A stretch of DNA of 34,353 nt from Lachnospiraceae bacterium (lineage in GTDB: Bacteria; Bacillota; Clostridia; Lachnospirales; Lachnospiraceae), in NCBI GenBank assembly GCA_029062895.1, contig JAIDPF010000094.1, positions 1 to 34,353 on the forward strand. Reading direction: 5' to 3'. Under the pieces are notes generated by a model. It saw only the letters and a program-made list of their open reading frames with translations. It had not been told where the DNA came from and did no database searches. The translations under genes and the position numbers were made by a program. This document shows, in pieces, positions 1,381 through 26,439 of this stretch; positions within the stretch are counted from its first letter, which is position 1, and the number at the start of each line of letters is the position of its first letter.

Positions 1381-1487
1381 CAGGTTGTGGAAAGGCGTGG
1401 AGGTTAGAACGAAAAATCAAAGATTTTTCATTCATGAATTTGTGCCAACGGCCCAAATTCGCAGACTGTGGAAAGGCATGGTTATTA
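1381..1487 (+). repeat. dispersed palindromic repeat, copy A
   Basis: Copy A of a repeat also found before secE (copy B) and rpsG (copy C). The core at 1411-1429 is GAAAAATC, a three-A loop and GATTTTTC. It is followed by a part shared with copy B: ATTTGTGCC, CCCAAATTCGCAG and GTGGAAAGGCATGGTTATTA. A partial second copy of the right end (CAGGTTGTGGAAAGGCGTGG) precedes the core at 1381-1400. The whole stretch is open in the frame of the downstream gene and would read KNQRFFIHEFVP...RLWKGMVI. The purine-rich GGAAAGG at its end could act as a ribosome binding site. Confidence 0.8.
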
Positions 1488-11923: not shown

Positions 11924-12034
11924 GGATTTGGGTCGTAATAAGACGCGGCATGAGATTGAAAAATCAAAGATTTCTCAATCGTGTATTTGTGCCTGAAACC
12001 CAAATTCACAGGTTATGGAAAGGCATGGTTATTA
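11924..12034 (+). repeat. dispersed palindromic repeat, copy B
   Basis: The core at 11954-11980 is GATTGAAAAATC, a three-A loop and GATTTCTCAATC (one mismatch). An outer stem GGATTTGGGT / ACCCAAATTC (11924-11933 with 11998-12007) encloses it. The right part matches copy A: ATTTGTGCC, ACCCAAATTC and ATGGAAAGGCATGGTTATTA. It is open in the frame of secE and reads KNQRFLNRVFVP...RLWKGMVI. The frame and the amino-acid pattern agree with copy A. Confidence 0.8.
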
Positions 12035-12036
12035 GC

Positions 12037-12249
12037 ATGGGAAATTCCGATAAGACAGATGGAAAGACGAAGAAACCGAGCTTCTTCAAGGGCTTAAAAA
12101 AAGAGTTTAAGAAGATTACATGGCCGGATAGAAAAACAGTGACAAAGCAGACCGCTGCTGTTGTGGTGGTTTCTGTTGCTTTGGGACTGCTGATTGCGCT
12201 TCTGGATTTTATCATTCAGTATGGTGTTGACCGATTGGTAACATTCTAA
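12037..12249 (+). CDS. secE: preprotein translocase subunit SecE
   Basis: About 70 residues from ATG 12037 (MGNSDKTDGKTKKPSFF). FKGLKKEFKKITWPDRKTV is the conserved cytoplasmic amphipathic helix of SecE, and a single membrane helix follows (TAAVVVVSVALGLLIALLDF). SecE clamps SecY in the protein export channel. An in-frame ATG at 12025 and one at 11950 lie in the dispersed repeat. They would add 4 or 29 residues unlike SecE, so I prefer 12037, though the nearest purine-rich box (GGAAAGG) is about 13 bases away. The gene lies between rpmG and nusG as expected. Confidence 0.9.
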   Translation: MGNSDKTDGKTKKPSFFKGLKKEFKKITWPDRKTVTKQTAAVVVVSVALGLLIALLDFIIQYGVDRLVTF

Positions 12250-15989: not shown

Positions 15990-16135
15990 AAGGTTGTAAT
16001 GACCATGCCGAAGACAGCAGGTGCAGAAGCATACATGCTATGCATGCGTAAAACGTTTCCATGCGTTGCCTGCCGAGGAGAAAAGAGTTTTTTGTATGAC
16101 TTGATTCCTCTCCGGCGTCCGGAGAGGTTTTTTAC
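15990..16135 (+). promoter_or_regulatory. ribosomal protein L10 leader
   Basis: The stretch contains the conserved blocks of the Firmicutes L10 leader: CCGAAGACAGCAGGTGC near 16009-16025, a central hairpin (ATGC-rich) and TGCCTGCCGAGGAG near 16067-16080. The final part is an intrinsic terminator. By family knowledge, the L10-(L12)4 complex binds the kink-turn region of the leader and causes early termination when L10 is in excess. Confidence 0.88.
16107..16133 (+). terminator. regulatory terminator of the L10 leader
   Basis: CCTCTCCGG and CCGGAGAGG form a perfect 9-bp stem with a CGT loop followed by six T. It lies between the L10 leader and rplJ, so it must be read through for expression. 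Confidence 0.9.
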
Positions 16136-16198
16136 ATGATATAAGATGTGAAACTCCTTTCGGCAGAACCGATGAAAATAATATAAGGAGGTAGAAAG

Positions 16199-25866: not shown

Positions 25867-26439
<573 letters not shown>

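What the first reader, a model, noticed from the sequence alone, without database searches (positions are those of the whole stretch)
1381..1487. A dispersed palindromic repeat is in frame with three unrelated genes
Copies at 1381-1487, 11924-12034 and 25910-25944 share the core GATTGAAAAATC-AAA-GATTTTTCAATC. Each lies just before a start codon (glycosyltransferase, secE, rpsG). In all three the repeat has no stop in the frame of the downstream gene and reads KNQRF(F/L). Copies A and B continue FVPxxQIxRLWKGMVI and carry GGAAAGG where a ribosome site is expected. Random insertion would give the same frame three times in about 1 of 27 cases (less if one copy is taken as reference: 1 of 9). It may be a mobile element that supplies a translation start, a leader peptide, or an RNA structure. 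I know of no described family that it matches.
Basis: partly seen in the sequence, partly recalled or inferred. Interest (0 to 1): 0.8.

Follow-up and report, generated by a model that had tools for sequence, protein, structure and literature searches.

The report
Mobile hairpin element inserting at start codons
A short hairpin-forming DNA repeat of gut Lachnospiraceae sits between a gene's old ribosome-binding site and its start codon, and its own tail appears to act as the new ribosome-binding site, so it may have rewired translation of many genes, secE among them.

Summary
The repeat is real and not confined to three copies. Over 60 copies lie in this genome, it is abundant in 5 of 35 genomes of the genus, and 34 of 397 family genomes sampled carry it. 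A full copy is hairpin 1 + hairpin 2 + a ~25-nt tail (AGGTTATGGAAAGGCATGGTTATTA). Both hairpins covary across genera.

Of 60 own tails, 36 abut a gene start, 27 exactly 2 nt before it, against 18.5% and 1.3% of random positions. The left flank is Shine-Dalgarno-like in 33 of 59 own copies (controls 5-16) and 32 of 40 copies from 13 other genomes (controls 2-10). In relatives without the element that Shine-Dalgarno runs straight into the same start codon. So the element inserts between Shine-Dalgarno and start codon; its tail probably takes over as ribosome-binding site.

The in-frame claim fails: core-to-start mod 3 is 12/4/11 in 27 copies, 16 of them closed by a stop. SecE keeps the same start in a relative without the element. 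The rpsG copy is truncated, upstream of a native Shine-Dalgarno.

I found no described family that fits. The mobilising enzyme is unknown.

The parts
1381..1403 (+). Probable remnant of an older element tail (CAGGTTGTGGAAAGGCGTGGAGG) just left of copy A
   Evidence: Direct repeat of 1462-1496, 71% over 35 nt; a similar old tail left of a newer element is seen at one gene (C88:5234) in own genome, G033 and G007
1407..1433 (+). Copy A hairpin 1
1434..1462 (+). Copy A hairpin 2 (core TTTGTGCC...GGCCCAAA)
1463..1487 (+). Copy A tail with GGAAAGG, proposed ribosome-binding region; GTG start of the glycosyltransferase at 1490
11954..11980 (+). Copy B hairpin 1
11981..12009 (+). Copy B hairpin 2, partly decayed
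   Evidence: non-standard pairs marked
12010..12034 (+). Copy B tail, proposed ribosome-binding region of secE (ATG at 12037)
   Evidence: relative G033 keeps the tail and has lost the hairpins
25910..25936 (+). Copy C: hairpin 1 of a truncated copy, no hairpin 2 or tail
25954..25961 (+). Native Shine-Dalgarno of rpsG (AAGGAGGG); GTG start at 25969. Not part of the element
   Evidence: present in relatives without the element

Best explanation
A family of short (about 80-140 bp), non-autonomous, mobile palindromic elements that insert a few bases upstream of start codons, between the gene's native Shine-Dalgarno (SD) and its ATG/GTG. The element has two adjacent hairpins and a 3' tail. After insertion the native SD is stranded about 80 nt or more from the start, and the tail (GGAAAGG...TTA-nn-ATG; in a sister family ATGGAGGATTA-nn-ATG) serves as the new ribosome-binding region. 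Insertion is therefore survivable even in front of genes such as secE. Shown: copy number, two-hairpin covariation, position, presence/absence at orthologous starts, different inner modules at the same site, and tails without hairpins. Inferred: that movement is DNA transposition by an enzyme acting in trans on the hairpins, and that ribosomes use the tail.
For: Tail to start: 36 of 60 tails have a start codon with ORF>=50 codons within -3..+12, 27 exactly at +2; random positions 18.5% and 1.3%. SD-like left flank (12 nt, -4 kcal/mol or better): 33 of 59 own copies, 26 control windows 5-16 (mean 10.5); after dropping 18 possible older tails 22 of 41, controls 1-13, p=5e-4 against the control mean. 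Forty copies from 13 other genomes (12 in other genera, G003 of the same genus): 32 of 40 SD-like, controls 2-10; 33 of 40 with a gene start at the element end, 26 exactly. Orthologues without the element put that SD next to the ATG: GCGGGCAG|TATG, GAGGACCAAGGTATG, AGAGGAGAATATATTATG, AACGGAGGATTTCTATG, AAAGGAGGGATTTTATG and others; by eye 14 of 34 genes. 27 of 34 genes have at least one of four relatives with no module recognised. secE: five genomes (own and four relatives) show full element, different module, tail only, none, and two stacked elements. Among 100 orthologous sites, 17 of the 19 with hairpin 1 also have a tail or sister module, while 22 of the 36 with a tail lack hairpin 1. Covariation: 105 doubly changed cells against 34 in shuffles and 3-13 with slid partners.
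Against: No enzyme found: Y1 transposases (PF01797) do not track the element (none in G007 or G034, which are rich in it but 88% and 72% complete), and 20 Y1 loci carry no hairpin 1 or tail and only loose hairpin-2-like hits in one. No clean target duplication could be defined. GGAAAGG lies 13 nt from the start, longer than usual, and predicted anti-SD pairing is modest (best mean -3.8 kcal/mol). Predicted openness of the tail (0.33-0.49) and start (0.37) is not clearly above that of the coding part (0.48). GGAAAGG is only slightly better kept in start-abutting copies (mean 0.19 mismatches, against 0.46), and the 18-nt tail as a whole is not (1.28 against 1.00). 24 of 60 tails do not abut a gene by the test. 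Gains were not seen directly: filled/empty pairs do not by themselves exclude losses.
Confidence: 0.7

Rival explanations
1. Not mobile: an inherited cis-regulatory RNA leader shared by a regulon (a riboswitch-like or protein-bound two-hairpin element) that controls translation of many genes.
For: Conserved structure with compensatory changes and a near-invariant hairpin-2 core TTTGTGC...GC-CAAA; placed right before starts.
Against: No Rfam match at the gathering score on the window; on nine copy loci at E<=1 the only hit over an element is TD-2 on the opposite strand (E 0.97, 29.7 bits, below its gathering score of 48.7). Unrelated genes. Present in some and absent in other close relatives at the same gene. 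Patchy: 5 of 35 genus genomes hold 36-113 matches, the rest 0-3. Modules differ and stack at one site.
Confidence: 0.12
2. An in-frame peptide element or leader peptide, in the manner of Rickettsia palindromic elements, extending proteins with a peptide like [26 protein letters not shown].
Against: Frame counts 12/4/11 and 16 of 27 interrupted; inner length varies by non-multiples of three; a relative without the element shares the SecE start.
Confidence: 0.03
3. Insertion is not targeted. Copies landed anywhere, and those at the SD-start gap persisted because their tail happened to work or was selected.
For: 24 of 60 tails do not abut a start; the rpsG copy, a copy between tRNA genes (L180) and C34:3060 (junction against G033) lie elsewhere.
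Against: 27 of 60 at exactly +2 and SD at the left junction in two independent sets. Neutral upstream positions should then dominate.
Confidence: 0.15

Closest known systems
BOX elements of Streptococcus pneumoniae (PMC3049150, passages read)
   Same: Short, modular, hairpin-forming, dispersed, thought mobile and non-autonomous; module number varies between strains at one site
   Different: That paper reports them over-represented between convergent genes, and BOX-encoded ORFs that lack good Shine-Dalgarno candidates; these sit at the SD-start gap with their tail 2 nt from the start. BOX sequences were not compared here
REP / GTAG-tagged palindromes with RAYT transposases (PMC3733652 passages, PMC8266576 abstract)
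   Same: Hairpin preceded by a short tag (here nTAG), high copy, dispersed; PMC3733652 also notes repeats at annotated N-termini that may really lie before the true start
   Different: GTAG in only 11 of 59 copies (TTAG 29); Y1 gene absent in two rich genomes; two hairpins plus an RBS-like tail; 'Firmicutes', 'Clostridi' and 'Lachno' do not occur in that paper's main text
Rickettsia palindromic elements (PMC10969869, passages read)
   Same: Palindromic repeat found in unrelated genes
   Different: Nearly half of the RPEs first described there lie inside genes and can be translated with them; here frame is not kept
MITEs in general (PMC10969869, passages read)
   Same: Small, non-autonomous, structured, lineage-specific bursts
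   Different: No terminal inverted repeats seen and no target duplication defined; the review's main text holds no 'ribosome binding', 'start codon' or 'Shine-Dalgarno'
Hairpin between SD and start in some phage T4 mRNAs (recalled, not looked up)
   Same: Structure between SD and start codon
   Different: There the hairpin shortens the spacing; here a ~25-nt tail follows, so the native SD stays far away

Membership tests
MITE | Terminal inverted repeats | tested here: not met
   Left end nTAGATTG..., right end ...GGTTATTA; hairpins are internal (by eye)
MITE | Target site duplication | tested here: inconclusive
   Junctions in C31:15537 and C34:3060 allow 0-3 nt (by eye); others diverged
MITE | Presence/absence at orthologous sites | tested here: met
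REP (RAYT-associated) | GTAG tag before the hairpin | tested here: not met
   GTAG 11 of 59, TTAG 29 of 59
REP (RAYT-associated) | Y1 (RAYT) transposase in the genome | tested here: inconclusive
   PF01797 absent in G007 and G034, both incomplete (88%, 72%); present in G000, G008, G033 and in 12 genomes that lack or nearly lack the element
Rickettsia palindromic element | In-frame insertion in coding genes | tested here: not met
BOX | Modules with variable middle unit | tested here: met
   Inner inserts in hairpin 2 differ between copies and orthologues; works like, not member of
BOX | boxA/boxB/boxC sequence | not tested
   No BOX sequence was compared
Known riboswitch/leader RNA | Match to an Rfam family | tested here: not met
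   one sub-threshold antisense TD-2 hit (E 0.97)

The most novel reading that the evidence does not exclude
A new class of mobile element whose target is the translation initiation region itself. It recognises the SD-start gap, perhaps as RNA or as single-stranded DNA during transcription or replication, inserts 2 nt before the start codon, and replaces the ribosome-binding site with its own. Several sister families (shared 3' end ...TTA-nn-ATG) compete for, stack on and replace each other at the same sites.
Probability: 0.3. Interest if true: 0.92.

Novelty: new variant of a known kind. Interest (0 to 1): 0.74.

Why it matters
Small interspersed repeats are usually tolerated where they do least harm. 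These sit at one of the most constrained places of a gene, the SD-start gap, including in front of secE, and seem to survive because they bring a ribosome-binding region with them. That gives natural filled/empty pairs in close relatives for testing how translation initiation regions are swapped, how a mobile element can come to lie at start sites, and how many gene starts may be mis-annotated through the open frame of the repeat.

Tried and rejected
Frame conservation: tested and rejected. Known RNA: no Rfam match above threshold for the element; one sub-threshold antisense TD-2 hit. IS200/IS605-type partner: Y1 distribution does not track, and 20 Y1 loci lack hairpin 1 and tail, with loose hairpin-2-like hits in L318 only. 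Plasmid, phage or virus source: no match in the phage or plasmid collections, and no exact match of one 21-nt hairpin-2 form in viral contigs. Looping so that the native SD is used directly: considered; the unpaired stretch would still be about 30 nt (anatomy), and relatives keep a tail without hairpins. Predicted accessibility and GGAAAGG retention gave only weak or mixed support. A strict version of the start test (ORF>=70 and an in-frame stop within 90 nt upstream) gives 17 of 60, 11 at +2, against 3.2% and 0.2% at random; it loses copies because the element itself is often open.

Limits: of 148 rows, 72 were read with flanks: all to E 3.1e-6 except C101:404, which I missed; many lower rows are reverse echoes of the palindrome. 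13 of 72 lacked a recognised hairpin-1 arm and were dropped from flank counts; 12 of 72 lacked the tail pattern and were dropped from start counts. Orthology used 34 of the 51 copies with a long downstream ORF and four relatives; 100 of 136 possible sites were recovered. The 50 called 'no module' include one run of N and a few with tail-like remnants, so 50, and the 27 of 34 genes, are upper bounds; relatives G009, G026 and G003 were left out of these counts, and part's output was cut. A1 was drawn largely from exact-core hits, so hairpin-1 invariance there is partly by selection. A2 shares no identical row with A1 but is fitted to the model structure. The family search scored at most 11 candidates per genome. 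The 40 copies read from other genomes were among the better-scoring ones. Gene names other than SecE, S7 and the glycosyltransferases, such as rpmG, are my reading of translations and come from no call.

Full report
WHAT WAS CHECKED. The three cores are present: copy A at 1407-1433 with three mismatches to the palindrome, copy B at 11954-11980 with one, copy C at 25910-25936 with none. The downstream proteins are a glycosyltransferase (PF13524), SecE (PF00584) and ribosomal protein S7 (PF00177). Copies A and B are full elements; copy C is a truncated one.

COPY NUMBER AND SPREAD. A search of the genome (3.07 Mb, 115 contigs) with copy B gave 62 matches at E<=1, and the 19-nt core pattern with up to 2 mismatches gave 24 forward and 24 reverse matches against none for the reversed control. 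A covariance model from 50 copies (A1) gave 148 rows at E<=1, part of them reverse echoes of the palindrome. In the genus, G000, G033, G034, G007 and G008 hold 113, 91, 78, 57 and 36 matches at E<=0.01; the other 30 genomes hold 0-3. In the family, 34 of 397 genomes sampled and 29 of 334 genera have a match at E<=1e-5. An exact-core scan of public genomes returned 86 stretches; of the 80 listed, nearly all are titled Lachnospiraceae (others: Lachnoclostridium, Ruminococcus, Herbinix, Parablautia muri, one 'bacterium').

ANATOMY. Left end nTAG; hairpin 1 (12 pairs, AAA loop in the commonest form); hairpin 2 with a near-constant core TTTGTGC...GC-CAAA; tail AGGTTATGGAAAGGCATGGTTATTA; two bases; start codon. 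Hairpin 2 can carry further palindromes in its loop, and hairpin 1 has alternative forms. In A1, 8 of 24 pairs have a double change, against 2.4 in shuffles. In copies from 13 other genomes (A2, 41 sequences from 40 loci), 15 of 24 pairs and 105 cells have double changes, against 9.5 and 34 in shuffles and 3-7 pairs, 3-13 cells with slid partners; no A2 row is identical to an A1 row.

POSITION. Of 72 own copies read with flanks, 60 have a recognisable tail; 36 of these abut a start codon with an ORF of at least 50 codons, and 27 do so at exactly +2. Random positions do so in 18.5% and 1.3% (20,000 draws from 70 own loci). 46 of 57 copies follow a same-strand ORF (70 codons or more) ending within 150 nt, as within operons; in 7 the element's TAG is that ORF's stop. 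The 12 nt left of the element pair with the anti-SD at -4 kcal/mol or better in 33 of 59 copies, against 5-16 in 26 control windows; without 18 possible older tails, 22 of 41 against 1-13. Forty copies from 13 other genomes repeat this independently: 32 of 40 against 2-10, with 33 of 40 at a gene start.

EMPTY SITES. In relatives lacking the element, the same left flank runs into the start codon: own GCGGGCAG[element]TATG against G007 GCGGGCAGTATG; own GAGGACA..[element]GTATG against G033 GAGGACCAAGGTATG; G034 AACGGAGGATTAG[element]TATG against G033 AACGGAGGATTTCTATG; C76:25883, C88:1405, C1 and others likewise. I count 14 of 34 genes by eye. 27 of 34 have at least one relative with no module recognised, an upper bound. 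So the SD left of the element is, in these cases, the gene's former one.

secE AS A TEST CASE. Own genome: full element. G034: same place, different inner module. G033: only the tail between the upstream stop and the secE ATG. G007: no element, AGGAGAAAGG before the ATG. G008: two stacked elements, the second with GACATGGGAGATTAGTATG. The protein starts MGNS/MGDS in all five. With only the tail left in G033, the tail is the sole candidate ribosome-binding region there, though coupling to translation of the upstream gene cannot be excluded.

rpsG. Own genome has hairpin 1 only, G033 a decayed one, G034 and G007 none; all have the native AAGGAGGG before GTG. This copy says nothing about translation supply.

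FRAME. Among 27 copies with a recognised hairpin 1 and an abutting gene, core-to-start mod 3 is 12/4/11, and in 16 the frame is closed before the core. Orthologues at one gene differ in element length.

STACKING AND A SISTER FAMILY. At C88:5234, own genome and G033 carry this element and G007 a different one, all right of a similar old tail. Copy A shows the same. A second 3' end, GACATGGAGGATTA, occurs 49 times with up to one mismatch (control 1; a few of these overlap copies of the first family); of 20 read, 15 have a gene start within 12 nt, and several share hairpin 1.

MECHANISM. Shown: structure, position, presence/absence, module differences at one site. Inferred: transposition in trans and ribosome use of the tail. 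The GGAAAGG-to-ATG spacing of 13 nt is long, and pairing and accessibility predictions are only modest, so the second inference needs an experiment.

LITERATURE. Six searches asked for palindromic repeats in Lachnospiraceae, repeats or MITEs at SD/start codons, and Parablautia repeats. Four held no paper; one search listed one and one search listed 10 of 54, and their titles and abstract starts showed no such element. Three more searches were on BOX, RPE and REP. Subscription journals are mostly not held, so absence from print is not proven.

Noticed in passing
L447-L466 (own genome): A sister family ends in GACATGGAGGATTA-nn-ATG, a textbook SD at good spacing; 15 of 20 copies read have a gene start within 12 nt, some lie directly behind a tail of the first family.
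   Followed up: partly
L221 (G008), L335 (G007): Other stacked modules (GTGTGAGAAG... and CGAAAAACGC...) occupy the same pre-start position.
   Followed up: no
L180 about 1401-1489, L043 about 301-325: Copies lie between tRNA-Val and tRNA-Asp genes, not at protein starts.
   Followed up: partly
window 15990-16143: Rfam L10 leader (RF00557) match.
   Followed up: no
L040 1711-1796: NiCo riboswitch match about 200 nt from a copy of the element.
   Followed up: no
A1 columns 41/53, A2 columns 59/69: Inside hairpin 2 a T.C mismatch flanked by nearly invariant pairs is the commonest state (31 of 50 and 22 of 41 rows); T-A, T.T and others make up the rest. It may be a recognition feature.
   Followed up: partly
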